From Frankiales bacterium (lineage in GTDB: Bacteria; Actinomycetota; Actinomycetes; JAFAQI01): DNA of 13,638 bases. The translations under genes and the position numbers were made by a program. The stretch is from the NCBI GenBank assembly GCA_019246495.1, contig JAFAQI010000162.1, positions 1-13,638 of the forward strand, given 5' to 3'. The notes under the pieces were generated by a model. It saw only the letters and a list, made by a program, of their open reading frames with translations. It ran no database searches and was not told the origin of the DNA. Positions 1 through 13,638 of this stretch are shown here, one piece after another (the stretch's first letter is position 1; each line of letters begins with the position of its first letter).

Positions 1-1344
1 CACGCTGCGCCGGGCGCGCTGCGCATCACCGGCACGGGCGCCGGCTCGGGGGCACGGTCGCCGGCGTTTGCCGTGACGCCCGGCGATCGCTACGTCGGAT
101 CGGCCTGGGTGCGCGCCGCGAGCGGTGGCCACCGGGTCGCGGCCGGACTCGTGTTCTTCGACAGCACCGGCGCGGCGATCGCATCGGCGGCCCAGCGCGG
201 CGAGCCGGTGACCGACAACACCGCGGGCTGGGTCGCCACCTGGCCGGTCGCCGCCGTCGCACCGCCACAGGCCAGCTCGGCTGCGATGACCGTCGTCAGT
301 GCCGACTCGACATCCGGCGTCGACGAGGTCGACGACGTGACGATGACGGAGGCGAGCGCCGGCCCGGCCGCGCTCGTCCCGCCGCTCACCACCAGTGGCA
401 CGACGGTCCTCGACGGTCTCGGCCGGGCGGTGCATCTGCACGGCGTACAGCTCGGTGGCATGGCCGACCGGCAGTGGACCCCCGGCACCGTCTCGACGGA
501 GGAGATCGGCGTCGTGCACTCGTGGGGTGCCAACTTCGTGCGGCTGCCGTTGCTCGAGAACGCGGTTGTGCCGGGCGACTGCCTCTACGACGCCGGCTAC
601 CTCGCCGAGGTCGACCGCATCGTGCACGACGTCACGAGCCTCGGCATGCTCGTCAGCGTCGACCTGCACCTGTCCGCGGTGACGCCGTGCGGCAGCTATG
701 GCAAGCAGGACCTGCCGGACTCCAAGGGCGTGCGGTTCTGGCAGATCGTGGCAGCGCGCTACCGGTCCAACCCGCTCGTTGCGTTCGACCTGTTCAACGA
801 GCCGCACAACGTCACCGACGTGCTGTGGCGCGACGGCGGTGTGGTCACGTCCGGCGGGATGCGCTACGCCGGTATCGGGATGCAGCGTCTCTACGACACC
901 GTGCGCGCGACCGGTGCGACCAACCTCGTGTTCGTCAGCGGCACTCGCTGGGCGACGACCGCGCCGACGACGTCATTGTCCGGCACCACGAACACGGTCT
1001 GGGGCGTGCACGCCTACACCTGCCCGACGAAGACCGCCGCCCAGGGCGGCAAGTGCACGCCCGGACCGGCCGGCCCGACGGATCCGACGGGAATCCTGAG
1101 CCGGTGGGTCGGCGTGCACGACGCACCGGTGATGGTCACGGAGTTCGGCTATCCGGACCCTTCGCTGGAGGACTACATCGCGCACACCGACGCGTTCGCA
1201 CGGTCACACGGCTGGGTCGGCTGGAACGCGTTCGTCATGGACGGCGGCAAGACGAGTGCGTTCCGGCTCGTGCGCGACACCAGCCCGACGTGGAACCCCG
1301 AAGCCAGCGGCATGGCGGTGCTGGCGGGGATGCTCGACGACTGA
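1..1344 (+). CDS. Secreted-type GH5 glycoside hydrolase with N-terminal carbohydrate-binding-like domain (5' partial)
   Basis: The frame is open from base 1 and ends in TGA at 1342-1344, so the N-terminus, and any signal peptide, lies outside the window. A GTG at 73 is probably internal, because the codons before it continue the same beta domain. Counting codons from base 1, codons 1 to about 119 look like a beta-sandwich of the CBM4/9 type (motif TPGDRYVGSAWVRA). The GH5 barrel follows to the end: Arg181 in NFVRLPL, His223 in VDLHLS, the acid/base Glu267 in FDLFNEP, His337 and Tyr339 in GVHAY, and the nucleophile Glu381 in VTEFGYP. Both catalytic glutamates are present, so the enzyme should be a retaining beta-glycanase. 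Four cysteines (194, 230, 341, 352) fit an extracellular protein. Its substrate cannot be read from sequence. It converges with the exporter operon, with a single base between the stop codons, and may act on the glycan made here. Confidence 0.9.
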   Translation, partial: HAAPGALRITGTGAGSGARSPAFAVTPGDRYVGSAWVRAASGGHRVAAGLVFFDSTGAAIASAAQRGEPVTDNTAGWVATWPVAAVAPPQASSAAMTVVSADSTSGVDEVDDVTMTEASAGPAALVPPLTTSGTTVLDGLGRAVHLHGVQLGGMADRQWTPGTVSTEEIGVVHSWGANFVRLPLLENAVVPGDCLYDAGYLAEVDRIVHDVTSLGMLVSVDLHLSAVTPCGSYGKQDLPDSKGVRFWQIVAARYRSNPLVAFDLFNEPHNVTDVLWRDGGVVTSGGMRYAGIGMQRLYDTVRATGATNLVFVSGTRWATTAPTTSLSGTTNTVWGVHAYTCPTKTAAQGGKCTPGPAGPTDPTGILSRWVGVHDAPVMVTEFGYPDPSLEDYIAHTDAFARSHGWVGWNAFVMDGGKTSAFRLVRDTSPTWNPEASGMAVLAGMLDD

Positions 1345-1345
1345 C

Positions 1346-2644
1346 CTACGGCGTGGGGTCGGCCGGGCCCGGGTCAGAGTTCGCGATGTCGCTGCGCCCG
1401 GCCAGTCGCTCGCGCGGTGGCGCCGTGACCGGCCGGCCGTCGATTGCGATCTCGGCCTCGAGGTTCACGAACCCACCGGCGAGCACGCCGACGCTGCTCA
1501 CGTAGAACGACTCGGGTGTGGTCGAGCCGAGCATGACGTCGCCGTCGCTCTCATACGCCGCGACGGTGACCGTGTAGCCGCCGGCGAGCAGCCGGACGTT
1601 GAGCGTGATCTCGGCGTTCAGCGGCCGACCAGGGCCGTGAGTGCCGCGGTAGGCGCCCTTGTCGGTGAACGTCGTGTAAGCCGGGGAGCCGAGCCCCACG
1701 GGCGCGACCATCAAGCCGAGGATGGGGTCGGTGACCTCGCGCTCGAACATCACGTCCATGCGAATGACCAGCTGGTCACCGGTGGCGAACGTGCGCTGCC
1801 GCACACCAGTCGTGTCGACGAGGTCGAGCACGACCTCGGCGCCGCCGAGATAGGTGGGGGCGTTGCCCTCCTGAAGCATCAGGTCGTCGCGACCGCCGCG
1901 GTCCCGGGTCTCCTGCTGCATCACCTCGTGCATCCGGCCGATCGCCTGCTCGGTCGGGCCGTCGTACACGAGCTTGCCGTGCGACAGCAGCACGGCTCGC
2001 GGAGCAATCCGGTCGAGGGTGTGCAGGTTGTGCGTGACGATGACGATCGTCGTTCCGCTCGCCTGGATCTCGCGCATGCGCGCCATGCACTTCAGCTGGA
2101 ACGCGAGGTCCCCGACGGCCAGGATCTCGTCCAGGACGAAGACCTCGGGCGTGGTGTGGATCGCGACGGCGAACGCGAGGCGCAGGAACATGCCGGAGGA
2201 GTAGAACTTCACCGGGGTGTCGATGAACTGCTCGATCTCGCTGAAGTCGACGATCGCGTCGAAGTTCGCGCGGATCTCCGCGGGCGTCATGCCGAGCAGC
2301 CGGCCGTTGACCTCGACGTTCTCGCGGCCCGTCAGCTCGTTGTTGAACCCGACGCCGATGCCGATCAAAGGCGCGACCCGGCCGACGACGCGCACCCGCC
2401 CGGTGGTCGGTGCCGACACCCCGGACAGCAGCCGCAAGAGCGTGGTCTTGCCGGAGCCGTTGCGACCGATGATGCCGATCGTCTCGCCCTGCTCGATCTC
2501 CAGGTCGATGTCACTGAGCGCCCACAGCGGGTTGCGGGAGCGCCGGCGGCCGAGGGCGAGCAGCTTCTTGTAGAACAGGTCGCTCGACTGGTGCGTCTGC
2601 GTGTAGCGCTTGCCGACACCGTGCAGCTCGACGGAGTTCGCCAT
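1346..2644 (-). CDS. ABC transporter ATP-binding protein of a polysaccharide exporter (Wzt-like, with C-terminal glycan-binding domain)
   Basis: A 432-residue ATPase that would energise export of a lipid-linked glycan with the permease encoded just upstream. The nucleotide-binding domain covers about residues 1-240: Walker A GRNGSGKTT at 60-68, a degenerate signature YSSGM at 148-152 as is usual for the Wzt/TagH group, Walker B VFVLDE at 168-173 and switch His205. Residues of about 260-405 form a second, beta-rich domain resembling the Wzt C-terminal domain (motifs GDQLVIRMDV, GLMVAP, GGYTVTVAAYES), which in known Wzt proteins binds the finished glycan. The ATG at 2644 is chosen because it overlaps the permease stop by one base (TGATG). 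The frame stays open 29 codons upstream, but that stretch lies inside the permease gene. The last 25 residues are Pro/Arg/Asp-rich and probably disordered. This is the last gene of the operon. Confidence 0.92.
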   Translation of the reverse strand: MANSVELHGVGKRYTQTHQSSDLFYKKLLALGRRRSRNPLWALSDIDLEIEQGETIGIIGRNGSGKTTLLRLLSGVSAPTTGRVRVVGRVAPLIGIGVGFNNELTGRENVEVNGRLLGMTPAEIRANFDAIVDFSEIEQFIDTPVKFYSSGMFLRLAFAVAIHTTPEVFVLDEILAVGDLAFQLKCMARMREIQASGTTIVIVTHNLHTLDRIAPRAVLLSHGKLVYDGPTEQAIGRMHEVMQQETRDRGGRDDLMLQEGNAPTYLGGAEVVLDLVDTTGVRQRTFATGDQLVIRMDVMFEREVTDPILGLMVAPVGLGSPAYTTFTDKGAYRGTHGPGRPLNAEITLNVRLLAGGYTVTVAAYESDGDVMLGSTTPESFYVSSVGVLAGGFVNLEAEIAIDGRPVTAPPRERLAGRSDIANSDPGPADPTP

Positions 2645-3501
2645 CAGAGCCGGTCCACCGAGACTCGCTCGAAGCGCGAGTAGAGTACCAGCGTTGCCAG
2701 CAGGAACAGGACCGTCCAGCCGCCGGTCCACAGCAGCGACCGGCCGAGGTAGTCGGCGTGCCCGGTCAGCGCATAGCGCGCGAACTGTACGACGCCGGTC
2801 GCCGGGTTGGCGATGACGTAGTCGCGCAGCGACGCGGGCAATGCGCGGCGTCCGCCGTTGGCCGACAGGCCGTAGATGATCGGTGCGGCGTAGAAGAGGA
2901 TCAGCGTCAGTGCCTGGATGACGTAGCGGACGTCACGCGAGTAGACGTGCGCCATCGACATCACGGCGCCGATCGAGACCACGAGGATCCAGGCGAGCAC
3001 GACGACCGCGGGCAGCAGCAACAACGTCAGGTGCAGCCCGGCTCCGGTCACCAACGCGATGACCTCGGCGATCAGCAACGAGATGACGAGTCCGGGGACG
3101 TTGGCCGACGCGGGGATCGCCGGCAGCAGCAGCCGCGGAAAATAGATGCGTCCGGCGATCGCTCCGCTGTCGACGATGGACGTGCTCGCGGACGTGACGG
3201 TCTGGGACAGGAACGACCACGCCGACATCCCGACGATGACGTAGGGGACGTACGCCTTCGCACGACCACCGCCGACGAGGTGGCTGAAGACGATCGCGAT
3301 GACGACGCCCTGGAGCAGTGGCAGGCTGACACTCCACATCAGCCCGAGCGACGCGCTGCGATAGCGCGACCGGTAGTCGTGCCGCGCCATCATCACGAGC
3401 AGGTCGCGGTGCCGGAAGACATCCCGGAGCAGGACGTGGACCGGAGTCCGCTGACCGGTGAGCTCGAAGACCTCGCGCTCGGCAGCCGTTCTGGAGGTCA
3501 T
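2644..3501 (-). CDS. ABC-2 type polysaccharide export permease (Wzm/TagG-like)
   Basis: A 285-residue integral membrane protein, the usual size for Wzm/TagG permeases. It has a cytoplasmic N-terminal helix with the family pattern HRDLLVMMARHDYRSRYRSA (31-50), then about six hydrophobic segments near residues 52-74, 84-106, 136-154, 156-181, 195-211 and 257-274. The stretch YSRDVRYVIQ (187-196) followed by FYAAPIIY (203-210) is typical of ABC-2 glycan permeases (membrane-proximal region D-[VIL]-x-x-[VIL] then SPIxY-like). The start codon ATG at 3501 overlaps the stop of the sulfotransferase (ATGA), with a GGAG four bases upstream as ribosome binding site. With the Wzt-like ATPase it should form the two-plus-two exporter. 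The polymer moved is not identified by sequence; the neighbouring glycosyltransferases and sulfotransferase suggest a decorated glycan. Confidence 0.93.
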   Translation of the reverse strand: MTSRTAAEREVFELTGQRTPVHVLLRDVFRHRDLLVMMARHDYRSRYRSASLGLMWSVSLPLLQGVVIAIVFSHLVGGGRAKAYVPYVIVGMSAWSFLSQTVTSASTSIVDSGAIAGRIYFPRLLLPAIPASANVPGLVISLLIAEVIALVTGAGLHLTLLLLPAVVVLAWILVVSIGAVMSMAHVYSRDVRYVIQALTLILFYAAPIIYGLSANGGRRALPASLRDYVIANPATGVVQFARYALTGHADYLGRSLLWTGGWTVLFLLATLVLYSRFERVSVDRL

Positions 3502-4865
3502 CGGGCTCCAGAGCCTCGACCGACCACGACGATGCGTTCCACGAGCCCCTCGCTGTCGAGGAACACCTGGTGCAGGAACTGCCGGGCACCGCCGTCGGAC
3601 CAGCGCATCGTCGCAGCGACTTCGTCGGCTTCGAGCACCAGCAGGCGACAGCCGGTCAGCTGCGTGACGAGGTGGTCGGCCACGGTGTCGCGGCCCTCGA
3701 CGCGGTCGTCGCCGTCGAGCAGCGCGACCTTGGCGCCGAGGTTCTGGGCGGCGTCCGCCGTGTTGCCGGCGCTGATCGCCTCGGCAAGCCCGCGCGCCCG
3801 GCGGCGGATCACTCCGCGGCGCTGCACATCGGTCGGCCGGCGGGTCACTCGCCGCGCGTTGCGCCTAGCCCGGCCGACCGCCTTGCGGGCGAGGTCGCGT
3901 CCTTCGACCGCCGTACGCCGCACCGAACGTTGCGCGAGCACCCGGTCGCGGTGCTCCGCCGTCACGTAGCCGAGGTCGACCAGCAGGTCGCCGGCCGCGA
4001 CGAGGATGTCGCGTTCGATGTCACCGCTGATGCGCTCCCACTTGCGGGCGCGCACGTCGGGCATCGACGGGCGAAGGTTCACCGGCGTCTTGCCGAAGTC
4101 CGCGACGCTCGTCAGGTAGTTGTCGTCGTACGGAAGGCCGATCGCATCGAGCGCGCGCGCCAGCTCGCGGGGCGTGTCGGCCAGCAGGTCCTCGTAGCGC
4201 AGCTCGACGTAGTTGAGGCCGGACAGGTGCTCGCGGCAGTCGAGCACCGCCTCACGCCACCGCGCCGCGTTGGCGAGGTGGTCGCGATAGGTGGAGCTCC
4301 ACGACCAGAGGTTGTGCGCACTCGCCGCCGAGTCGCGGCCGTCACGGATGATCTGGATGTAGGTGGCGTCGGGATAGACCTCGGCCGCCTGTGCGGCGTA
4401 AGGGATGTGGTTCGGCGTCTTGTCGAGGACGTGCGTCGCCTCCGGGCGGATCGTCTCGCGCAGCCGGCCGAAGACGCCGTCGACGAGCTCGCGCATCAAC
4501 GTCACGAGCTCAGGTCGGGTCAGCCAGCCGGAGAGGTTGAAGTAGGGGTCCTCGCTCGCGTGGTTGTCGAGCAGCGGCCCGATGCCTTCACAGAAGATGT
4601 GCGACTCGCCCGCGGTCGCGACCTGCGGATGCAGCATCAACAGCTGGTGCAACCACGTTGTGCCGCTGCGTGGTGCGCCGAGGACGAAGACCACGCGCCC
4701 GTGCAACGGGCTCGCGGTCGGGTTGAATGCCGGGCCGGCCGTGGGGTCGTTGCCGCGAGCCTTCGCCCGGATGTAGACCTCATATGCGGACTGCAGCACC
4801 GGCTCGACGGGCATGTGGCCGGACTGTACTCCAGCGGATTTCGGCGCCGGCTCGTTGTTGGTCAC
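3498..4865 (-). CDS. PAPS-dependent sulfotransferase with C-terminal NTF2/SnoaL-like domain
   Basis: A 455-residue protein. Residues 58-310 are a sulfotransferase domain: the 5'-phosphosulfate-binding P-loop FVLGAPRSGTTWLHQL (60-75), a VLDKTPNHIPYA segment (146-157) and the 3'-phosphate-binding motif IIRDGRDSAASAH (172-184) with its Arg and Ser. It should transfer sulfate from PAPS to a hydroxyl of a sugar or lipid-linked acceptor in the cytoplasm. A basic linker (about 313-358, rich in Arg) leads to a roughly 95-residue C-terminal part (about 360-455) whose pattern (LAEAISAG, VEGRDTVADHL, FLDSEGLVERIVVVG) resembles an NTF2/SnoaL fold, an unusual addition. GTG at 4865 is chosen as start: AAGGAG lies 5 bases upstream and the GTG overlaps the stop of the SGNH gene (GTGA). 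A later ATG (Met18) is less likely. Its place next to the exporter suggests that it modifies the exported glycan. Confidence 0.88.
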   Translation of the reverse strand: MTNNEPAPKSAGVQSGHMPVEPVLQSAYEVYIRAKARGNDPTAGPAFNPTASPLHGRVVFVLGAPRSGTTWLHQLLMLHPQVATAGESHIFCEGIGPLLDNHASEDPYFNLSGWLTRPELVTLMRELVDGVFGRLRETIRPEATHVLDKTPNHIPYAAQAAEVYPDATYIQIIRDGRDSAASAHNLWSWSSTYRDHLANAARWREAVLDCREHLSGLNYVELRYEDLLADTPRELARALDAIGLPYDDNYLTSVADFGKTPVNLRPSMPDVRARKWERISGDIERDILVAAGDLLVDLGYVTAEHRDRVLAQRSVRRTAVEGRDLARKAVGRARRNARRVTRRPTDVQRRGVIRRRARGLAEAISAGNTADAAQNLGAKVALLDGDDRVEGRDTVADHLVTQLTGCRLLVLEADEVAATMRWSDGGARQFLHQVFLDSEGLVERIVVVGRGSGAR

Positions 4866-5698
4866 GTCGACTCCTTGGCCGCATCGGCTCGTTGCTGCTC
4901 GAGCCAGGCGACCACCTCGCCGGCCAGCAGCTCGCCGACGCGACGATGCGTGTCCGGCGAGTAGTGCATCCCGTCCGGCAGCATTTCGACGCCACCACCG
5001 CGGGTCAGCTCCGACACCTTGACGAGCCGGACGTCGGGAGCGTCGAACGACGCGACGACGCGCGCGATGCGTTCCTGATAGATCGCGTGCCGCGGCTCGA
5101 GGTTCGGCAGGAAGTGCGCGAGCGTGCCGCTCGGTTCGTCGATGTCGAGCACGAGGATGAGCGGCTTCCCTTCGCTGCGGACGGTGCGGATCAGCCGGCG
5201 CAGGTGCCCGGCGAAACGACGAGGTGTGGTCTGCCAGGTGTGCACGCCGACGAGAGGCGCAACGCGGCGGCGGTAGCCGCGCACCTGCTTCCACGCCGGC
5301 CGCGCGATGTGGCGGCGGTAGCGGGTGGCGAACCGGCCGACAGCCCGGTGCTGCACCATCAGATGCCGGATGAGCCAGATCGGCACGAGCCACGGCTGGT
5401 ACTCGTTCAGGCCGAACTGCACGATCAACACGTCGGGGACGTGCGACCGCACCCGCGTCTCGTAGTCGCGCAGCGCACGGTGCAGGAAGTCGAACCACTT
5501 GCCTTCGAGATGCGGCGTCACCGGCACCCCGCGCTCGGCGAGGCAGTCGGCGAGCACCTCGAGATAGTTGCCCTGGCCGCGGTCGGCGGCGGCCGGCATC
5601 TGCATGAACGTCACGCTGTTGCCGAACGCGACGACCGACAGCGGTCGGCGTCCCGCCGGCCAGGGCAGCTGCGGCCGCACCCCGCGCTGGGTGTTCAC
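4862..5698 (-). CDS. SGNH/GDSL-family hydrolase or acyltransferase-like protein, predicted cytoplasmic
   Basis: A 278-residue protein from a GTG at 5698 that overlaps the preceding stop (GTGA). SGNH motifs are visible: block I FGNSVTF (25-31, Ser28 as nucleophile, with GNS instead of the usual GDS), block III QFGLNEY (94-100, GLNE where GxND is usual) and block V LPDGMHYSPD (240-249, Asp242 and His245). The second strand of the core is VPDVLIVQFG (87-96) and a later one KPLILVLDID (178-187). Between them lies a basic segment (about 104-165) that is long for the family. No signal peptide or membrane segment is seen, so the protein probably works in the cytoplasm, as an esterase or acyl-group handling enzyme on a glycan intermediate. 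That role is inferred from position between glycosyltransferases and the sulfotransferase. The start is less sure than the frame because its ribosome binding site is weak. Confidence 0.8.
   Translation of the reverse strand: MNTQRGVRPQLPWPAGRRPLSVVAFGNSVTFMQMPAAADRGQGNYLEVLADCLAERGVPVTPHLEGKWFDFLHRALRDYETRVRSHVPDVLIVQFGLNEYQPWLVPIWLIRHLMVQHRAVGRFATRYRRHIARPAWKQVRGYRRRVAPLVGVHTWQTTPRRFAGHLRRLIRTVRSEGKPLILVLDIDEPSGTLAHFLPNLEPRHAIYQERIARVVASFDAPDVRLVKVSELTRGGGVEMLPDGMHYSPDTHRRVGELLAGEVVAWLEQQRADAAKEST
4871..4876 (-). promoter_or_regulatory. Ribosome binding site of the sulfotransferase gene
   Basis: On the minus strand this reads AAGGAG, five bases before the GTG at 4865. It is the best Shine-Dalgarno match in the operon and decides the start. 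The much longer upstream open frame is therefore only an antisense-like extension over the neighbouring genes. Confidence 0.8.
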
Positions 5699-6621
5699 AG
5701 CAGCACCGCCCGGTGCCGGATCGATCCGGCGATGAGCACGCCGGCCTCGACGACGTCGCTCACGGCAAGTGCGGCGGCGCGACGTGGCGGGTGCTTGCGC
5801 AGCCGGCGTACGACGACCGGCGCCGCAAGAAGCAATGCGCCGGACGAGATCGGCGTCAGCGCAATGCCGGCCAGCGCGAGGCAGGCGGCCGGATGGTTGT
5901 CCTTCCAGAACCAACGCCGATAGCCGAGCCGGTCGCGCAGTTGCGGATGACGGCGTACGACGAGAGGCAGGTCGCCCCAGCGAGGCAACGAACGGAGATG
6001 TCCGACGAAGTCGACCGCGCGCACCGCATGCCAGATGAGGGCGTCCGGCGCCCAGGCGGCGGCGCCATGCTGTTCGATCACCCGCCACGCGAGATCGGTG
6101 TCCTCGCCCGCCTGCATCGCCGGGTCGAAGCCGTCGGTCGCCTCGAGCGCCGAGCGACGCAGCAGCAGGTTGCAGCCGGGGTAGTAGCCGCTCTCCACCG
6201 GCTGGTTCACCGTGCGCGCCCACGGCCCGGTCACGCCGGCATCCTCGGGATGCGGAGCGACCGGGCCGGCGACGAGCGCCCGGTCGTCGCCCGCCGCCTG
6301 CACCAGCGCGGTGAGCCAGCCGACCGACGGCTCGCAGTCGTCGTCGGTGAACGCGACGAGATCGGCTCGCGCGGCCCGCCAGCCGGCGTTGCGCTTCGCC
6401 GACACTCCGCGTTCGTCGATGCGGAGACCGCGCACCGGCAGGTCGTCCGCGACCTCGGCGAGCAACGCCGTGATGCCGGCGTTGCCGTCGTGCACGACGA
6501 CCACTTCATAGGGGTCGGCGAGGTCCTGGCCGGCCAGCCCGCGCAGGCAGCGCCGGAGTAGCTCGACCCGGTCGACGGTGGGCACGACGACGGTGACGAC
6601 GGGCGGGACGGATCCGGTCAC
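5695..6621 (-). CDS. GT2 family glycosyltransferase
   Basis: A 308-residue GT-A fold enzyme that should transfer a sugar from a nucleotide donor to a lipid-linked or growing glycan. Visible motifs are VTVVVPTVDRVELLRRCL (9-26), VVVVHDG (40-46, where DNGSTD is usual), RNAGWRAA (77-84), the metal-binding DDD in FTDDDCEPS (91-99) and the acceptor-side acidic motif GEDTDLAWR (172-180). A hydrophobic part (about 244-272) suggests membrane association. The protein ends in a tail GSIRHRAVLL that matches two other glycosyltransferases in the window in both motif and spacing. The GTG start at 6621 overlaps the previous stop (GTGA) and its own stop overlaps the SGNH gene. Donor and linkage cannot be inferred. 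Confidence 0.9.
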   Translation of the reverse strand: MTGSVPPVVTVVVPTVDRVELLRRCLRGLAGQDLADPYEVVVVHDGNAGITALLAEVADDLPVRGLRIDERGVSAKRNAGWRAARADLVAFTDDDCEPSVGWLTALVQAAGDDRALVAGPVAPHPEDAGVTGPWARTVNQPVESGYYPGCNLLLRRSALEATDGFDPAMQAGEDTDLAWRVIEQHGAAAWAPDALIWHAVRAVDFVGHLRSLPRWGDLPLVVRRHPQLRDRLGYRRWFWKDNHPAACLALAGIALTPISSGALLLAAPVVVRRLRKHPPRRAAALAVSDVVEAGVLIAGSIRHRAVLL

Positions 6622-7571
6622 AGCACCGGAGTCCGTTCGCGCAGCGAGCCGTGCAGCAGCGCGGCCGACACCGCGAGGTCGAACGCCGCCGCCCCCGCGC
6701 TGTCCGCCAAGGCGCGCCGGTTCACTCCGCGCGGCCGGTGTCGCCAGGCGAAGGGGAGCAGTGCGGCCAGCGGCTCAGGTCGGCGCAGCAGGATCGCCGT
6801 GACCGCGCCCGCGAGCGCCAGGTCGGTCTCGGCGGACCGGCGCCGCAGGAACAGCCCGTGCCAGAGCAGGTCCCGGCGCTCGGGAAAGCGGCGCAGCAGC
6901 GACGGCCAGTTGGCATAGCCGCGGGCCCGCCGCAGATGCCAGCCGAGGCCGGGAGTCGTCACCACATGAGAGACAACGGCGTCAGGGGCCCATCCATCGC
7001 GCCATCCGGCCCGCAAGACCGACCAGCCCGCGGCGGTGTCCTCACCGAAGAACCCGACTTCTTCGTCGAAACCGCCCGCCGAGATCAGTGCGCGGCGGCG
7101 ATAGAAGACGTTGCACGCCTCGAACAGGCCCGACGGCTCGGCGATGTCCTGGGTGGCGGACCAGCGGGCGACCGGCGGGTGCTCGGGCACGGTGCGTCCC
7201 TGGACGACGCCGACCTCCTCGTCGGCGAACGGCGCGAGGCCCGCGCTGAGCCAGTCCGGCTCCGCCGTGCAGTCGCTGTCGGTGAAGGCAACGATGTCGC
7301 ACGTCGCCGTACGGACCGCGGTGTTGCGCGCACGGCCGAGCGTGCCGGTGTCCTGGACGACGCGCAGGTTCGGCACCGTGCCCGCCGCTTCCGCCATCGC
7401 CTCGAACGTGCCGTCGGTGCTGCCGTTGTCGACCACGACGATCTCGGCGGCGGCGTGGAACTGCGTGACGATCGAGTCGAGACAGCGCAGCATCAGCTCG
7501 CGACGGTCCTTCACGACGACGCACACCGAGACGGTCAACCCGGCGCTCGCGGTCTCGTCGCGCTCGCTCAC
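6618..7571 (-). CDS. GT2 family glycosyltransferase
   Basis: A 317-residue GT-A type glycosyltransferase with all standard landmarks: VSVCVVVKDRRELMLRCLDS (14-33), VVVDNGSTDGT (45-55), GRARNTAV (79-86), metal-binding DSD in AFTDSDCTAEPDWL (95-108) and GGFDEEVGFFGEDTAAGW (166-183) with the catalytic-side Glu-Asp. After the catalytic domain comes WPSLLRRFPERRDLLW (222-237), then hydrophobic stretches at about 250-275 and 288-306 that may dip into the membrane, and the tail GSLRERTPVL. The GTG start at 7571 overlaps the stop of the GT4 gene (GTGA), and the 3' end overlaps the next GT2. It is more like the C-terminal half of the fusion protein at 8779-10980 than like the GT2 at 10989-11900, judged by these shared motifs. 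Confidence 0.9.
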   Translation of the reverse strand: MSERDETASAGLTVSVCVVVKDRRELMLRCLDSIVTQFHAAAEIVVVDNGSTDGTFEAMAEAAGTVPNLRVVQDTGTLGRARNTAVRTATCDIVAFTDSDCTAEPDWLSAGLAPFADEEVGVVQGRTVPEHPPVARWSATQDIAEPSGLFEACNVFYRRRALISAGGFDEEVGFFGEDTAAGWSVLRAGWRDGWAPDAVVSHVVTTPGLGWHLRRARGYANWPSLLRRFPERRDLLWHGLFLRRRSAETDLALAGAVTAILLRRPEPLAALLPFAWRHRPRGVNRRALADSAGAAAFDLAVSAALLHGSLRERTPVL

Positions 7572-8701
7572 GGCCGCGCCCCGGCATAGACCTGCTCGAG
7601 CGCCGGCACGACCGCGGCGTCCCAGTCATAGGCCCGTGCGCGCTCCCGGCAGGCATCCGCTGTGTCGGCCTGCCGGGCGAGGTCGAGCGTCTCGCCGATC
7701 GCGTCGGCGAGCGACGCCGCGTCCGGGCCGCTGCACCGGCCGATGCGGTCGTCGTCGACGATTTCCGCCGGACCGCCGCCATCGGCGCGTACGACGGCCG
7801 GGGTCCCGCTCGCCAGCGACTCGACGACGGTCATGCCGAACGACTCCGCAGTTGATGGAAGTGCGGTCACCCACGCCTTGGCATAAGCCGCACGCAGCTC
7901 CGCATCGGACGCGAGCTTGCACATCGTCACCGCAGCGCGGACCTCCGCCGTCGTCGCCGACAGCAGCGGCGCCGCGTCACCCGGACCGAGCAGCCAGAGC
8001 TGGAGATTCGGCTCGCGGCGCAGCAGCTGGTCGACTGCCGCGAGCAGCAACGGAAGTCCCTTGCGCGACTCCGTGAGGCTGCCCGCATAGAGCACGGTCG
8101 GCCGATCAGCGCGCGCCTTTGCGACCTCGTGCGCGCTCACGTCGACACCGGGCGGGACGACCGCGGCGGTCCTGCCGTAGTCGCGGGCGAGACAGTCCGC
8201 TGCGGCCTTTGACACGCAGACATACGCGCCGATCCGGCGTACGACGGTGGCGTGCGCCGCCCGGTCGGGCCGCGCATCCCGTGACGCCCGGGCCGGAAAC
8301 CCGTGGTCGGTGAACACCGTGCGCGCCGACGAGTGCAGCCGTCCGGCGACGGCGCCGCACCAGGCGGCCGCAGCGCCGTCACCGGTCGACGTGGCATGCC
8401 AGACATCGAATCGGCCGGCAAGAAAGGCGGGTGCGAGGTGACCGAAAGCCTGCGCGCCGAACGCCCGCTCGATCGCGAGGTCGGACCAGGGCGGCGGGAA
8501 GTTGCGGCGCCGCGCGTGGCGCACCGGCAGCCGCTGCACCGGGACGTCGAGCACGCGGTCACGGCCGGGATGGATGCCGGTCGAGAGGATGCGCACGTCG
8601 TGGCCGGCACGCCGCAGCGCCGCCGACAGCTCGTGCGCGTAGCGCTCGCCGCCGCGTCTCACATCGGGCCAGCAGTGCACGGAGGTGAGCACCACCCGCA
8701 T
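7568..8701 (-). CDS. GT4 family (GT-B fold) glycosyltransferase
   Basis: A 377-residue retaining-type glycosyltransferase, first gene of the seven-gene minus-strand operon. The N-terminal Rossmann domain has the donor/acceptor loop RRGGERYAHELSAALRRAGH (15-34) and FDVWHATS (98-105). The C-terminal domain holds VLYAGSLTESRKGLPLLL (203-220) and the family's E-x7-E motif in TAESFGMTVVESLASGTPAV (284-303), Glu286 and Glu294. The ATG at 8701 fits the start of the first beta strand (MRVVLTS). An AAGG lies 8 bases upstream, and a GAGGAG abuts the start codon too closely to be ideal. The long open frame upstream of 8701 has no family resemblance and lies antisense to the fusion gene. The stop overlaps the next gene (GTGA). 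A likely role is adding an early sugar to the glycan; the substrate is unknown. Confidence 0.9.
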   Translation of the reverse strand: MRVVLTSVHCWPDVRRGGERYAHELSAALRRAGHDVRILSTGIHPGRDRVLDVPVQRLPVRHARRRNFPPPWSDLAIERAFGAQAFGHLAPAFLAGRFDVWHATSTGDGAAAAWCGAVAGRLHSSARTVFTDHGFPARASRDARPDRAAHATVVRRIGAYVCVSKAAADCLARDYGRTAAVVPPGVDVSAHEVAKARADRPTVLYAGSLTESRKGLPLLLAAVDQLLRREPNLQLWLLGPGDAAPLLSATTAEVRAAVTMCKLASDAELRAAYAKAWVTALPSTAESFGMTVVESLASGTPAVVRADGGGPAEIVDDDRIGRCSGPDAASLADAIGETLDLARQADTADACRERARAYDWDAAVVPALEQVYAGARP

Positions 8702-8778
8702 CTCCTCGGCCTTGCAACCAGTTGCCAGCGCCCGTGCCACACTCTCACGGCTGTTGAGGCGGCCCGGGGAGGTGGCGC
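8702..8778. promoter_or_regulatory. Divergent promoter region between the minus-strand operon and the GT4-GT2 fusion gene
   Basis: These 77 bases separate two divergent start codons and must carry the start signals for both sides, unless transcription begins within the genes. I cannot pick convincing -35/-10 boxes. A short inverted repeat GCAAC-CA-GTTGC lies at 8714-8725, overlapping the leader of the operon, and could be an operator. It is short enough to be chance. Confidence 0.45.
8766..8772 (+). promoter_or_regulatory. Ribosome binding site of the GT4-GT2 fusion gene
   Basis: GGGGAGG lies six bases before the GTG at 8779. It supports that GTG as the start over later candidates. Confidence 0.75.
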
Positions 8779-10980
8779 GTGCGACGCCCGACCGTGCTGC
8801 ACCACGTGGAGCACTGGGCCCGGCCGAGCGAGGGCTTCGTCGTCGACACGATCCGCTCGACGACCGCCACCCGTGCTGTCGTCGCCGTGCATCGCCGGGT
8901 GCCGGACAGCGCAGCGGCCTGGCCCGGACGCACCTGGGATCTGTCCCGCTCGCGCGGTGCGCTGCCACCCGACAAGTCGCTCGGCGCGCTGCCGGCCGGC
9001 GCCCGCGACGCGCTCTGGTCCCCGGTGCCGGTGTCGGGCGCACTCGCCGCCGTCGCCGTGCTCGAGCGCGCTGCCGTGCTCCATGCGCACTTCGGTTTCG
9101 CCGCGCCATGGGTGTGGCGCGCGGCCCGCCGCCTGGGCCGTCCCTACGCCGTCTCGCTGCACGGCTGGGACGCGCTCGTGACCGTGCACCGCGACCCGCA
9201 TGTCGCCGATGCGGTGCGCAGCGCAGCGCTCGTCGTCGTGCCCAGCCGCTTTCTCGCCGGAGTTGCCGAGGGCTTCGGTGTCGATCCGGAGCTGATCCGC
9301 GTCGTGCCGAGCGGGCTCGACCTCGCGTCGCTGCCGTTTCGGGAACGTACGGCGCCGGCCGGCGTGCCGCTCGTGACGTTCGCCGGGCGGTTCGCGCCGA
9401 AGAAGGGAGTACTCGACGTCGCCGAGGCACTCGCCGTTGTCGCCGCCACCCGTCCGCTGCGGGTGCGCTTCGTCGGGTCCGGGCCGCTGGAGGCCGAGCT
9501 GCGTGCGCTGCTCGCCGCACGCCGTCTCGACGCGGAGATCGTCGACGGCCGGCCCGCCGGTGCGGTGCGGGCAGCGCTCGCCGAGACCGACCTCGCCGTC
9601 ACTGCGAGCCGCACTGCGCCCAACGGCGACGCCGAGTCGCTCGGTCTCGTCAACCTCGAGGCACAGGCCTGTGGGGTGCCGCTCGTCACGACCCGGCACG
9701 GCGGTGTTCCCGAGGCGGTGAGCGCGGACGGCGCGGTGCTCGTCGACGAGCACGGTGATATCCCCACGCAGCTCGCCGCGGCAGTGACGAGGTTGCTCGA
9801 CGCACCCGACCGTTGGGCCGCGATGGGCCGGGCGGGCCGTGCACACGTCGCCGCGAACTTCGAGCTCGGCGCAAGGACCGCCGACCTCGAGGAGCTGTGG
9901 CTCGCTCTCGCGGCCGGGGCGCGAGGCGCGGCTCTTCCCGCCGTACGCGCTGTCCCGCCACCGCCCGCGAGGACCGCGGTCGTGCTCGTCACGCACAACC
10001 GCCGCGAGCTGGTCGACCGCGCGCTCGACGCCATCGCCGCCCAGACGCGAGCGCCGGACGAGGTCGTCGTCGTCGACAACGGATCGACGGACGGCACCGC
10101 CGAGCTGCTCGCCCGACGCAGCGACTCACAGTCACCCATGGGTCTGAAAGTGTTGTCTCGCAACGAAAACCGGCCGGTCGCGGAGAGCCGGAACCTCGCC
10201 GCGGCTGCCACGTCAGCTGACGTGATCGCGTTCACCGACGACGACTGCCGACCGCGGCCGACGTGGCTCGAGGCGTTGCTGGCCGGTCGCCGCGAGGGGG
10301 TCGGCCTCGTGCAGGGACGCACCGGTGCTGACCCCGCGCAACCGTTGCGACCGCTGTCGCGCACGCAGTGGACACCGGCGGAGTTCGGTCTTTATGAGAC
10401 GTGCAACATCGCCTACGAGCGATCGGCCTTGCAGAGTGCACCGCCGTCGCAAGGTGACGGGCCGTTCGATCTTGCATTCGCGGAAAACATCGCGACAGCC
10501 GTCGGCGAGCGCTGGGGTCACCTGCCGTTCGGCGAGGACACCGAGCTCGGCTGGCGGGTGAAGTCGCGCGGTGTCGCGAGCCGGTTCGCGGTGCACGCCG
10601 TCGTCGACCACGAGGTCTGGCCGCCCGACCCGTCGTTGCTGCGGCGCCGCGCAGCGCTCGCGGCCGGTTTTCCCGCGCTGGTCCGTCGCGTGCCCGAGCT
10701 TCGCGAGACGTTCCTGTGGCATCGCGTGGTGCTCGGCCGGCATCGTGCGCTGTTCTGGCTCGCGGTCGGCGGTGTCGCCGCGGCCGGCGGTGCGCGCACG
10801 CCGTGGCCCGCTGTCGCTGTCGCGCCCTACGCCGTCGACCTCGTCGGTGGCCTGCGCGCACTCGCCCGGCCGGGTCGCCGCGCCCGGATCGCCGCCGCGC
10901 CGGTGATCCTTGCGAAGGACCTGCTCGAGACCGCCGCGCTGCTCCGCGGCAGCGTGCGCGCCCGCCGTTTCGTTGTGTAG
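8779..10980 (+). CDS. Bifunctional glycosyltransferase: GT4 domain fused to GT2 domain
   Basis: A 733-residue protein of two complete glycosyltransferase units. Residues 1 to about 380 are a GT-B/GT4 domain: HAHFGFAAPW (102-111), SLHGWD (126-131), VPSGLDL (176-182), TFAGRFAPKKG (200-210) and the E-x7-E pair Glu286/Glu294 in DAESLGLVNLE. After a Pro/Ala linker (about 381-398), residues 399-733 are a GT-A/GT2 domain: VVLVTHNRRELVDRALDAIA (401-420), VVVDNGSTDGT (430-440), FTDDDC (485-490) and FGEDTELGWR (584-593). A stretch of about 25-30 residues before the GEDT motif (around 552-580) is longer than in the neighbouring GT2s. Hydrophobic helices (about 656-690) precede the tail GSVRARRFVV. The GTG start has a good ribosome binding site. 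The fusion implies two successive transfers by one polypeptide. The gene converges on the next GT2 with 8 bases between stops. Confidence 0.9.
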   Translation: MRRPTVLHHVEHWARPSEGFVVDTIRSTTATRAVVAVHRRVPDSAAAWPGRTWDLSRSRGALPPDKSLGALPAGARDALWSPVPVSGALAAVAVLERAAVLHAHFGFAAPWVWRAARRLGRPYAVSLHGWDALVTVHRDPHVADAVRSAALVVVPSRFLAGVAEGFGVDPELIRVVPSGLDLASLPFRERTAPAGVPLVTFAGRFAPKKGVLDVAEALAVVAATRPLRVRFVGSGPLEAELRALLAARRLDAEIVDGRPAGAVRAALAETDLAVTASRTAPNGDAESLGLVNLEAQACGVPLVTTRHGGVPEAVSADGAVLVDEHGDIPTQLAAAVTRLLDAPDRWAAMGRAGRAHVAANFELGARTADLEELWLALAAGARGAALPAVRAVPPPPARTAVVLVTHNRRELVDRALDAIAAQTRAPDEVVVVDNGSTDGTAELLARRSDSQSPMGLKVLSRNENRPVAESRNLAAAATSADVIAFTDDDCRPRPTWLEALLAGRREGVGLVQGRTGADPAQPLRPLSRTQWTPAEFGLYETCNIAYERSALQSAPPSQGDGPFDLAFAENIATAVGERWGHLPFGEDTELGWRVKSRGVASRFAVHAVVDHEVWPPDPSLLRRRAALAAGFPALVRRVPELRETFLWHRVVLGRHRALFWLAVGGVAAAGGARTPWPAVAVAPYAVDLVGGLRALARPGRRARIAAAPVILAKDLLETAALLRGSVRARRFVV

Positions 10981-10988
10981 GAGGCGGC

Positions 10989-11900
10989 TCAGACGAAGTG
11001 GCCGTCGACCACCGACGCGCGAATGCCGCGGGTGAAGCCGACGACGAACCCGCGGATCCGGTTGAGGTCGACGACCGTGGCTCGCCAGCGCAGCCGCCAG
11101 ACGTGCTCCCACAACGTGACGACACCCCACGACCACAAGTTCTCGGCGGCCACGACCCTGAGCCGTTGCCGGTCGGTGCGCAGCAGCTTGGCCATCCGCG
11201 CGCCGGCGCCGACGCCATAGCCGTAGTGCAGCCGGATGACCTCACCCGTGCCGCGCCACGACTCGTGCCACGCCCGCGCGCTCGGTTCGAAGCGTCCAGT
11301 CCGGCCGATCGCAAAGATGCGGTCGAACAGGTCGACCTCCGGCGACGCGCGGAATCGCGAGCCGGCCCCCATCGACTCGTCGAACCCGCGGATCTTCTCG
11401 AGCACGTCCCGGCGTACGGCGAGACTCGCGCTGTGGCCGAGCACACCTCGGGTCGTCGAGTCGAGCACGACGGGTTGCTCGTCAGTCTTGAGTGCGACGG
11501 TGAAGCGCGCGTCGGGCTCGCCCATCGCGCCGATCCACCCGGTGACGAATGCCGCCTCCGGGTGTGTCGCGAAGCATTCGACGAAGGCGTCCGCCCAGGC
11601 CGGGTCGACGGTCACGTCGTCGTCGGTAAACAGCACGATGTCGTGCTGCACGGTGCGCCAGCCCGCGTTGCGGGCGCGATCCACCCCGGGAAGCTCGCAC
11701 CGCACGAGCCGGGCGCCGTGTCGCTGCGCTGCGGCCGCGACGGCGTCGGCGGCGATCGACGCCGAGTCCACCACGACGAGCTCGTCACCGTCGCGCAACG
11801 CGCCGCGCAACGAGCCGAGGCAGCGGTCGAGCTTCTCCGGCCGATCACGGCTCGGCACGATGACCGCGACAGGAGGTCGGCCAATCGCGTCGAATGACAC
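10989..11900 (-). CDS. GT2 family glycosyltransferase (divergent member)
   Basis: A 303-residue GT-A enzyme transcribed opposite to its neighbours. Motifs are PPVAVIVPSRDRPEKLDRCL (9-28), LVVVDSAS (41-48), GVDRARNAGWR (72-82), metal-binding DDD in LFTDDDVTVDPAWADAF (90-106) and GFDESMGAGSRFRASPEVDL (172-191). In the last, SPEVDL stands where the other GT2s of the window have GEDT, keeping Glu188 and Asp190. WHESWRGTGE (211-220) follows. It lacks the strongly hydrophobic C-terminal part and the G-S-x-R-x-R tail of the other three GT2 domains, so it is from a different subgroup and may be soluble or peripheral. GTG at 11900 begins the first strand; the upstream sequence holds a GAAAGGG eight bases before it. 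Substrates are unknown. Confidence 0.9.
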   Translation of the reverse strand: MSFDAIGRPPVAVIVPSRDRPEKLDRCLGSLRGALRDGDELVVVDSASIAADAVAAAAQRHGARLVRCELPGVDRARNAGWRTVQHDIVLFTDDDVTVDPAWADAFVECFATHPEAAFVTGWIGAMGEPDARFTVALKTDEQPVVLDSTTRGVLGHSASLAVRRDVLEKIRGFDESMGAGSRFRASPEVDLFDRIFAIGRTGRFEPSARAWHESWRGTGEVIRLHYGYGVGAGARMAKLLRTDRQRLRVVAAENLWSWGVVTLWEHVWRLRWRATVVDLNRIRGFVVGFTRGIRASVVDGHFV

Positions 11901-12954: not shown

Positions 12955-13638
12955 GTGCCTAGTGCCGTCCTCGACCTGCTGGCCGTGCTGGCCGTGGTGG
13001 CCGTGCTGCGCGCCCGGCCTTCGGTGGCGCTGACGGTCCTTGTCGTCGAGATGGTGGCGTTTCCGCCTACGCTCGTCGTGCCGCACACGCACACGCAGTA
13101 CGCGACGCTCACTCACGTCCTCGGCCTGGCCGGCGCCGTCCGGCTCGTGAGCATGCGCGTGGACCGCACCGCGGTTCGCGGCATGATGCGGCGCACGCCG
13201 GTGCACGTCGCGCTGATCCTCTTCATCCTCGCGGTGTTCACGTTCGGCGTCGCGTTCAGCTCGCAGGCGAGCGGCCTCGGCTCCGCAAACGTGCGGCTGG
13301 CCGGGCTGCTCGAGCAGCTGGCCTTCTTCATCGTGTGCATGGCCCTCGTGCGGGTCATCGGCAACATCGACGCCGCGCTGCGGGCGCTCGCAGCTGCGGC
13401 CGTGATCGCTGCGGCCATCGCCATCATCGAGCACATCACGCTCGGCTCGTGGGGGCACTGGCTGTTCGAGCACGCGACGCAGAACCGCTTCACCAACGCC
13501 TCCCACCAGCTGGCGCTGCGCGGCGACACCCGGCGGGTGAAGGCCGGCTCGGACTTCGCGTTGGAGTTCGGCTGGGTGATGGTTGTGCTGCTGCCCGCTG
13601 TGGTCGTCACGTCGTTGCGGCACAAGTGGTCGCAGGTG
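12955..13638 (+). CDS. Polytopic membrane protein, O-antigen polymerase/ligase (Wzy/WaaL)-like, 3' partial
   Basis: From GTG at 12955 the frame is open for 228 codons to the window edge with no stop, so the C-terminus is missing. GAGG lies seven bases before the GTG, and only three bases separate it from the Wzz-like stop, so the two genes are surely co-transcribed. Hydrophobic segments occur at about residues 4-19, 22-42, 50-66, 83-101, 116-134, 140-158 and 203-220. Between the last two, a polar stretch (HATQNRFTNASHQLALRGDTRRVKAGSD, split 173-192 and 193-200) is followed by FALEFGWVMVVLLP. The pattern of an Arg-rich loop followed by a small-residue helix is seen in O-antigen ligase/polymerase proteins. 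The essential periplasmic loop of that family would lie beyond the window, so polymerase and ligase cannot be told apart. Confidence 0.75.
   Translation, partial: MPSAVLDLLAVLAVVAVLRARPSVALTVLVVEMVAFPPTLVVPHTHTQYATLTHVLGLAGAVRLVSMRVDRTAVRGMMRRTPVHVALILFILAVFTFGVAFSSQASGLGSANVRLAGLLEQLAFFIVCMALVRVIGNIDAALRALAAAAVIAAAIAIIEHITLGSWGHWLFEHATQNRFTNASHQLALRGDTRRVKAGSDFALEFGWVMVVLLPAVVVTSLRHKWSQV

What the first reader, a model, noticed from the sequence alone, without database searches (positions are those of the whole stretch)
1346..8701. Candidate actinobacterial pathway for a sulfated, ABC-exported glycan
Seen: three glycosyltransferases, an SGNH protein, a P-loop sulfotransferase and a complete Wzm/Wzt-like exporter in one operon whose six junctions all overlap. 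Known: Wzm/Wzt pairs export lipid-linked glycans such as O-antigens, and bacterial PAPS sulfotransferases modify sugars or lipids. Inference: the sulfate is placed on the glycan before export, making a sulfated surface polymer or glycolipid. Mycobacterial sulfolipids use a different kind of exporter (MmpL), so an ABC route would be distinct.
Basis: partly seen in the sequence, partly recalled or inferred. Interest (0 to 1): 0.75.

Follow-up and report, generated by a model that had tools for sequence, protein, structure and literature searches.

The report
Likely sulfated-glycan export operon
An uncultured actinobacterium carries a gene set that probably builds a sugar chain inside the cell, adds sulfate to it and pumps it out through an O-antigen-like ABC transporter; several relatives, one with a complete genome, keep a sulfate-adding gene beside such a pump, but nobody has yet looked for the sulfated sugar.

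Summary
The operon is real: GT4, GT2, GT2, SGNH, PF13469 sulfotransferase, Wzm and C-terminal-domain-bearing Wzt at 1346-8701, minus strand, with overlapping junctions. Neighbourhood: in its order (13 genomes) 8 of 10 close Wzm copies have a sulfotransferase within four genes, against 1 of 11 exporters with short Wzt; the pairing also occurs in other Actinomycetota, including the complete genome IMCC26256. PAPS: the host assembly shows no APS kinase, but 11 of 13 order genomes do; cysD lies 9-13 kb from wzm in three relatives, and the host contig with the matching flank stops two genes short of cysC. Surface sulfate cannot be tested here. Best reading: a lipid-linked glycan sulfated in the cytoplasm, then exported (0.6). 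Of 17 inferred long SGNH-Wzt contigs, 16 show no listed sulfotransferase, so sulfation looks accessory in this clade, and Wzt's C-terminal domain does not track it. Sulfated clusters in the papers read are Wzx/Wzy-type, or ABC-type in cyanobacteria by prediction; this is a new variant.

The parts
7568..8701 (-). GT4-type glycosyltransferase, first gene of the operon
   Evidence: Pfam PF00534/PF13439; NCBIfam weak MSMEG_0565 family
6618..7571 (-). GT2-type glycosyltransferase (GT2a)
   Evidence: PF00535 88 bits
5695..6621 (-). GT2-type glycosyltransferase (GT2b), two C-terminal hydrophobic segments
   Evidence: PF00535 75.9 bits; hydropathy
4862..5698 (-). SGNH protein without hydrophobic segment; probable sugar O-acyltransferase or esterase (inferred)
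   Evidence: PF13472; 32-row alignment; weak NCBIfam hit to diglucosylglycerate octanoyltransferase, 18 bits
3498..4865 (-). PAPS sulfotransferase (PF13469) with a C-terminal NTF2-like domain
   Evidence: PF13469 108 bits; profile matches protein-tyrosine sulfotransferases and, at 338-436, designed NTF2 folds
2644..3501 (-). Wzm-like ABC-2 permease
   Evidence: NCBIfam NF050109 E 9e-16; five hydrophobic segments
1346..2644 (-). Wzt ATPase with C-terminal carbohydrate-binding-type domain
   Evidence: PF00005, PF14524; Aquifex aeolicus Wzt over residues 31-364, E 4e-63
8779..10980 (+). GT4-GT2 fusion, divergent; neighbour in the same locus
   Evidence: PF00534 and PF00535; GT4-part homologues in L120, L121, L154
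10989..11900 (-). GT2-type glycosyltransferase (GT2c)
   Evidence: PF00535; two homologues in each of L120, L121, L154
12016..12951 (+). Wzz-like protein with two hydrophobic helices (assignment by architecture; no Pfam hit over cut-off)
12955..13638 (+). N-terminal part of an O-antigen ligase/polymerase-like protein, cut by the contig end
   Evidence: no Pfam hit itself; homologue L121:214-2085 has PF04932 Wzy_C
1..1344 (+). GH5 glycosidase, cut by the contig end, convergent with wzt
   Evidence: PF00150 99 bits

Best explanation
The operon makes a surface glycan by an ABC-transporter-dependent route. The GT4 and two GT2 enzymes extend a lipid-linked sugar chain in the cytoplasm (families shown; sugars and lipid unknown). 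The SGNH protein and the PAPS sulfotransferase, both cytosolic by sequence, modify that chain (inferred from gene coupling and topology). Wzt's C-terminal domain engages the finished chain and Wzm/Wzt moves it across the membrane (inferred from O-antigen Wzm/Wzt). Neighbouring ligase-like and Wzz-like genes may attach it or make a second polymer (inferred). PAPS would come from cysD, cysN and cysC with an Inositol_P-family gene (that family holds PAP phosphatases such as CysQ; recalled), which in relatives lie near the same locus. The first rival below, sulfate as cap, is a special case of this reading.
For: Families and overlapping junctions. A sulfotransferase within four genes of 8 of 10 close Wzm copies in the order, against 1 of 11 exporters with a short Wzt; Fisher p 0.0019, not corrected for relatedness; a tblastn check that does not use my gene caller found no sulfotransferase in the negative loci. 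Wzm-Wzt-sulfotransferase with 4-bp overlaps in L117, L120, L121; three sulfotransferases after wzt in L118; an 8-bp gap before it in L119. Outside the order: Wzm-Wzt-sulfotransferase in L056, and Wzm, 397-aa Wzt, GT2, sulfotransferase with overlapping junctions in IMCC26256 (L059) and its near relatives L058 and L061. A sulfotransferase of another Pfam family (PF17784) with an SGNH gene beside a second long-Wzt exporter in L157. The 8 genomes of the order with a close Wzm are the 8 with a relative of this sulfotransferase; the other 5 have neither. cys genes near the locus in relatives. No hydrophobic segment in sulfotransferase or SGNH.
Against: No chemistry. APS kinase is not in the host assembly (0 of 1). 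Two of ten close Wzm copies lack an adjacent sulfotransferase (L154; L153 is cut by the contig end). Of 17 inferred SGNH-Wzt contigs of 8 kb or more, 16 show no sulfotransferase among the 120 listed. The nearest solved relatives of the sulfotransferase are protein-tyrosine sulfotransferases. cysD and cysN also stand in relatives without this exporter (L181, L182). No chain-initiating enzyme was identified among the window's genes.
Confidence: 0.6

Rival explanations
1. Special case of the best reading: the sulfate is the chain-terminating cap. The sulfotransferase sulfates the non-reducing end, stops elongation, and the Wzt C-terminal domain reads the sulfated end as the export signal, as methyl, (methyl)phosphate or Kdo caps do in O-antigens.
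For: A sulfotransferase directly follows wzt in L117, L118, L119, L120, L121 and L056, the position of the cap-enzyme gene in the E. coli O9a cluster (recalled). In the order the association is with long Wzt: 9 of 13 against 1 of 11 short ones. Known caps: PMC9445017 (abstract and passages).
Against: Wzt C-terminal identity to the window spans 42-64% in 6 inferred sulfotransferase-plus contigs and 35-66% in 16 -minus ones. L154, L158 and L246 have long Wzt and no adjacent sulfotransferase. GT2-methyltransferase fusions (L117, L121) and methyltransferases beside the IMCC26256 operon offer other caps. Sulfotransferases also stand beside short-Wzt exporters in L156 and L201.
Confidence: 0.18
2. 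The sulfotransferase acts on something else (a protein tyrosine, a membrane lipid or a small molecule) and the exporter carries an unsulfated, perhaps acylated, glycan.
For: Nearest solved relatives are protein-tyrosine sulfotransferases; the host has 8 PF13469 matches, two of them pieces of one frame, so sulfation may have several uses; sulfotransferase not listed for most SGNH-Wzt contigs.
Against: Recurrent pairing with this exporter type and overlapping genes; no other small gene lies within the operon, all junctions being overlaps.
Confidence: 0.14
3. The sulfated product is a Wzy-type exopolysaccharide made by the neighbouring GT, Wzz-like and ligase/polymerase-like genes, and the ABC exporter serves another glycan.
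For: Wzz-like and ligase-like genes lie beside the operon in the window, L120 and L121, and a Wzz-like gene in L154; the published Actinoplanes and Synechocystis clusters are Wzx/Wzy-type.
Against: In 7 of the 8 loci the sulfotransferase is directly beside wzm or wzt; no Wzx-family match among the window's genes.
Confidence: 0.08
4. The host cannot make PAPS, so the sulfotransferase is idle.
For: No APS kinase, and a single PF01507 gene, in the host assembly.
Against: 86.8% complete assembly; 11 of 13 order genomes have APS kinase, the two misses being the host and G005; the host contig C22 with the matching flank ends two genes short of cysC; the one PF01507 gene lies beside a nitrite/sulfite-reductase gene, as CysH would, which implies that sulfate activation exists (inference).
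Confidence: 0.03

Closest known systems
Aquifex aeolicus / E. coli O9a type Wzm-Wzt O-antigen exporter with C-terminal cap-binding domain (PMC9445017, abstract and passages)
   Same: Permease plus ATPase with a PF14524 C-terminal domain; sequence match to A. aeolicus Wzt over the NBD and part of the CBD
   Different: Actinomycetota host; sulfotransferase and SGNH gene in the operon; cap chemistry unknown; 'sulf' does not occur in that paper's main text
Synechan xss cluster of Synechocystis, and the ABC-type cyanobacterial clusters mentioned with it (PMC8205485, abstract and passages)
   Same: Sulfotransferases in surface-polysaccharide clusters; [quoted passage not shown]
   Different: xss itself is Wzx/Wzy-dependent; other phylum; no SGNH gene or cys genes named in the passages read
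wps-1 cluster of Actinoplanes missouriensis (PMC13390465, abstract and passages)
   Same: Actinomycete cluster with two predicted sulfotransferases and an adjacent gene of the sulfate adenylyltransferase/APS kinase family
   Different: Wzx/Wzy-dependent; sulfotransferases given other InterPro families; product unproved
E. coli K5 transporter-dependent capsule (PMC13171606, one passage)
   Same: ABC-type capsule cluster in which KfiB is called a putative sulfotransferase
   Different: Other phylum and exporter type; K5 polymer is not sulfated (recalled)
Mycobacterial galactan exporter RfbD/RfbE (NCBIfam NF050109, NF050108)
   Same: Only NCBIfam permease match and second-best ATPase match
   Different: Far below both cut-offs (58 of 380, 162 of 400 bits); the galactan ATPase model is 244 positions long, without a C-terminal domain
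Mycobacterial sulfolipid pathway (Stf0, MmpL8; recalled)
   Same: PAPS sulfotransferase in an actinobacterial envelope pathway
   Different: ABC exporter and glycosyltransferases here; no MmpL match among the window's genes

Membership tests
CBD-dependent Wzm/Wzt exporter | Wzt with NBD plus C-terminal Wzt_C domain | tested here: met
   PF00005 71 bits, PF14524 37 bits over cut-off 30.4; A. aeolicus Wzt E 4e-63
CBD-dependent Wzm/Wzt exporter | Permease of the Wzm kind encoded beside it | tested here: met
   NF050109 E 9e-16 though below its cut-off, five hydrophobic segments, 1-bp overlap
CBD-dependent Wzm/Wzt exporter | A dedicated cap is added to the non-reducing end and read by the CBD | not testable with these tools
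   Indirect only: C-terminal similarity does not track the sulfotransferase
PAPS-dependent sulfotransferase (PF13469) | PAPS-binding loops and catalytic Glu | tested here: met
   P48 to T52, Glu70, R157, S165 invariant in 30 rows; PF13469 over cut-off
PAPS-dependent sulfotransferase (PF13469) | Sulfate transfer to a glycan | not testable with these tools
   needs biochemistry
Host able to make PAPS | APS kinase and ATP sulfurylase genes in the genome | tested here: inconclusive
   APS kinase 0 of 1 own genome, 11 of 13 in the order; contig break before cysC
Wzx/Wzy-type sulfated EPS cluster (synechan, wps-1) | Wzx flippase and Wzy polymerase with the sulfotransferase | tested here: not met
   No Wzx-family match among the window's genes; the exporter is Wzm/Wzt; a partial ligase/Wzy-like gene is near by. 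Only this 13.6-kb contig was examined for Wzx
Mycobacterial galactan exporter | NCBIfam equivalog cut-offs | tested here: not met
   58 of 380 bits and 162 of 400 bits

The most novel reading that the evidence does not exclude
Sulfate, or a sulfated terminal sugar, is an export licence: the sulfotransferase caps the chain and the Wzt C-terminal domain admits only sulfated chains. This would be a new cap chemistry for ABC-dependent glycan export. Sulfotransferases, methyltransferases and acyltransferases swapped beside a conserved exporter would then set serotype-like variants.
Probability: 0.18. Interest if true: 0.75.

Novelty: new variant of a known kind. Interest (0 to 1): 0.54.

Why it matters
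Two of the papers read call sulfated bacterial polysaccharides a cyanobacterial trait, one of them adding a predicted actinomycete case, both clusters by the Wzx/Wzy route (a sulfated O-polysaccharide of Cobetia, cited in a third, shows that the trait is wider). A recurrent ABC-export version in Actinomycetota, within a lineage with 7-11 PF13469 matches in each of eight genomes (pieces counted), would give these bacteria an acidic surface and a set of exchangeable sulfation genes, and it lets one ask whether sulfate can serve as an export cap. The finding of a like operon in IMCC26256, which has a complete genome record, makes the question more testable.

Tried and rejected
Sulfate as the one cap read by Wzt: compared NBD and C-terminal identities in 6 inferred sulfotransferase-plus and 16 -minus contigs; no separation. 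Host without PAPS: set aside on synteny. Galactan exporter orthologue: rejected on NCBIfam cut-offs. Genome-contig scan with A1: the two chosen peptide patterns were narrow; 58 loci, identities mostly 21-34%. My codon-usage gene caller, trained on this GC-rich window, first gave Wzm or Wzt matches in 5 of these 58; a tblastn check made while checking this report showed that it had missed L058, L059 and L061. Corrected: Wzm and Wzt near the sulfotransferase in 4 of 58 (L056, L058, L059, L061; the last three are one close group), a long Wzt-like ATPase beside two sulfotransferases in L060, and only weak ATPase matches (23-29%) in L062, L064, L065, L084, L090, L093. Family of G426: sulfotransferase in 1 of 3 genomes. 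Class sample: 3 of 393 genomes matched the sulfotransferase at 1e-40 and 7 of 393 the SGNH protein at 1e-20; of the four SGNH genomes outside the order, G033 (L212) ends at SGNH, before the place of the exporter genes, and L213-L215 (27-31% identity) show no Wzm/Wzt. Contig sharing is inferred from equal contig lengths, with shifted lengths as control; one search held only the first 66 of 120 sulfotransferase rows and was redone with all 120; 118 of 119 SGNH rows (one has no contig length) and 120 of 120 listed Wzt rows were used, and these lists are themselves the best 120 of 616 and of 7,893 for the sulfotransferase and Wzt.
Full report
WHAT IS THERE. The window is the whole of contig C448 (13,638 bases) of a 2.84-Mb, 580-contig, 86.8%-complete assembly. 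On the minus strand at 8701-1346 lie GT4, GT2a, GT2b, SGNH, sulfotransferase, Wzm and Wzt, with five 4-bp overlaps and one 1-bp overlap. SGNH is only just over its Pfam cut-off, but Asp242 and His245 are invariant in a 32-row alignment and Ser28 kept in at least 90%. In the sulfotransferase P48 to T52, Glu70, R157 and S165 are invariant in 30 rows. Its last 100 residues match designed NTF2 folds (5trv, E 1.4e-5); of the exporter-side sulfotransferases tested this tail is seen in the window and L116. Neither SGNH, sulfotransferase nor Wzt has a hydrophobic segment by a simple hydropathy scan.

PHYLUM. One genome of the 'same phylum' sample has the contig length of the IMCC26256 complete genome (2,461,858), and another that of L056, labelled Actinomycetes bacterium (40,807). 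Some close proteins are labelled Frankiales, Mycobacteriales or Actinomycetota bacterium. So the host belongs to Actinomycetota; its order has 13 genomes here and is unnamed.

NEIGHBOURHOOD IN THE ORDER. A Wzm search in the 13 genomes found 24 places, and I read the genes around all 24. Ten, the window included, are close (E below 1e-45); all ten have a long Wzt (391-432 aa). Eight of these ten have a sulfotransferase within four genes: window, L116, L117, L118, L119, L120, L121, L155. In L154 there is none and L153 ends one gene after wzt. Three further exporters have a long Wzt (by length only): L157 has a sulfotransferase of another family (PF17784) next to an SGNH gene; L158 and L246 have none. 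Of eleven exporters with a short Wzt (229-279 aa), seven beside an FMN dehydrogenase gene, one has a sulfotransferase: the host's own C341 (L156); its counterpart L159 in a genus mate lacks it. Several of these stretches are short or end at contig ends. tblastn with eight sulfotransferases found none in the negative loci. Fisher p is 0.0019 for 8/10 against 1/11 and 0.0045 for 9/13 against 1/11; a chance model with 8 sulfotransferases in 3,000 genes gives 2e-11 for 8 of 10. All ignore relatedness. By genome, the eight with a close Wzm are the eight with a P0001-like sulfotransferase and the five others have neither, though G007 and G001 have other PF13469 matches. In a tree the exporter-side sulfotransferases fall in at least two well-supported clades (window with L116; L117 with L120 and L121), the rest less surely placed, so the pairing was made or exchanged more than once.

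OUTSIDE THE ORDER. IMCC26256 (L059, CP011489.1) has Wzm 7030-7887, a 397-aa Wzt 7877-9070, GT2 9063-10028 and sulfotransferase 10025-11014, all overlapping; L061 and L058 have the same order, at 80-99% protein identity. These Wzt have no Pfam Wzt_C match at 0.001 in L059. L060, labelled Flavobacteriales, has a long Wzt-like ATPase followed by a sulfotransferase, one unscanned gene and another sulfotransferase. G681 (L201) has a sulfotransferase beside a short-Wzt exporter. My first gene calls had missed three of these loci; the correction strengthens the neighbourhood test, and interest was raised from 0.52 to 0.54 for it.

SGNH AND ACCESSORY SULFATION. Equal contig lengths among three protein searches suggest shared contigs of 8 kb or more: SGNH-Wzt 17 against 0.04 expected, sulfotransferase-Wzt 5 against 0.05, sulfotransferase-SGNH 3 besides the window against 0.05, all three on one 12,547-base contig. 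So SGNH plus exporter is the more constant pair in the window's clade: 16 of the 17 show no sulfotransferase among the 120 listed. Wzt's C-terminal domain is no closer to the window's in sulfotransferase-bearing contigs. This speaks against sulfate as the sole cap.

PAPS. The host assembly gives no APS kinase and one PF01507 gene beside a nitrite/sulfite reductase gene, hence CysH-like. APS kinase is present in 11 of 13 genomes of the order; misses are the host and G005, and G010's is a fragment at a contig end. G005 keeps cysD, cysN and the Inositol_P gene (L188). In G009 the set is cysC, Inositol_P gene, cysN, cysD followed by glycosyltransferases, a nucleotidyltransferase and a GDP-mannose-dehydratase-like gene. 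In G006, G011 and G012 cysD lies about 10.2, 9.2 and 12.8 kb from the close wzm; in G012 cysC is on another contig, at its end. In G003 and G007, without this exporter, cysD and cysN stand away from any glycosyltransferase match in the 20 kb read, so PAPS genes are not specific to it. Host contig C22 (5,029 bases) matches the flank of G009's cysC (72, 82 and 41% identity over three genes) and ends before the next two genes, the second of which is cysC. The absence is therefore best read as a contig break.

LOCUS. In L120, L121 and L154 the exporter is flanked by homologues of the window's GT4-GT2 (GT4 part), GT2c (two copies) and Wzz-like genes, with the ligase-like gene in L120 and L121; L121's ligase-like gene has Wzy_C. 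L180, from the same contig as L121, has a GH5 homologue. The window is thus a version of a glycan locus shared by several genera of the family, with changed glycosyltransferase and modification genes.

MECHANISM. Shown: gene families, overlaps, recurrent pairing, cytosolic-looking modification enzymes, PAPS genes in relatives. Inferred: lipid-linked chain, sulfation and acylation before export, recognition by the Wzt C-terminal domain, ligation outside. Confidence 0.6 for sulfation of the exported glycan (0.18 for sulfate as its cap, a special case), 0.14 for another substrate, 0.08 for the neighbouring Wzy-type product.

PRINT. PMC8205485 (abstract and passages): synechan cluster, Wzx/Wzy, and sulfotransferase genes in ABC-type cyanobacterial clusters by prediction. 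PMC13390465 (abstract and passages): Actinoplanes wps-1, predicted sulfated, Wzx/Wzy. PMC9445017 (abstract and passages): methyl, (methyl)phosphate and Kdo caps; the term 'sulf' does not occur. PMC6801904 cites a sulfated O-polysaccharide of Cobetia (reference-list passage). PMC13171606 calls KfiB of the E. coli K5 transporter-dependent capsule a putative sulfotransferase (one passage). Eight searches of an open-access library listed no paper whose title or shown start of abstract describes an ABC-exported sulfated glycan of Actinomycetota; subscription papers are mostly not held, and most listed papers were seen only as listings.

Noticed in passing
window 3507-3803, minus strand (C-terminal part of the sulfotransferase): NTF2-like domain fused to a sulfotransferase; among the exporter-side sulfotransferases tested it is seen in the window and L116 only.
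   Followed up: partly
L118:3392-6622 (G009:C254): Three sulfotransferase genes in a row right after wzt, then a hexapeptide transferase gene.
   Followed up: partly
L156:502-1578 (G000:C341): A second host exporter with short Wzt has a sulfotransferase between FMN dehydrogenase and wzm; the genus mate's locus L159 lacks it.
   Followed up: partly
order of the host, 13 genomes: 7-11 PF13469 matches (pieces counted) per genome in eight members, none in three, while only 2 of 14 control genomes have any.
   Followed up: no
L058 (CAMDSG010000056.1): A contig labelled Bifidobacterium breve has an exporter operon 88-98% identical to that of IMCC26256 at the protein level, so the label or binning is doubtful.
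   Followed up: no
window 8779-10980: GT4 and GT2 domains in one ORF, divergent from the operon.
   Followed up: no
window 1-1344: GH5 glycosidase ends 1 bp from the wzt stop, convergent; weak endoglycoceramidase-model match.
   Followed up: no
L117:4786-6306 and L121:10362-11870: GT2-methyltransferase fusion directly after the sulfotransferase, a possible capping enzyme.
   Followed up: no
L212 (G033:C155): Another family of the class keeps GT4, GT2a, GT2b and SGNH at 58-65% identity with a divergent GT4-GT2-like gene, a second SGNH gene and two hexapeptide transferases; the contig ends at SGNH.
   Followed up: partly
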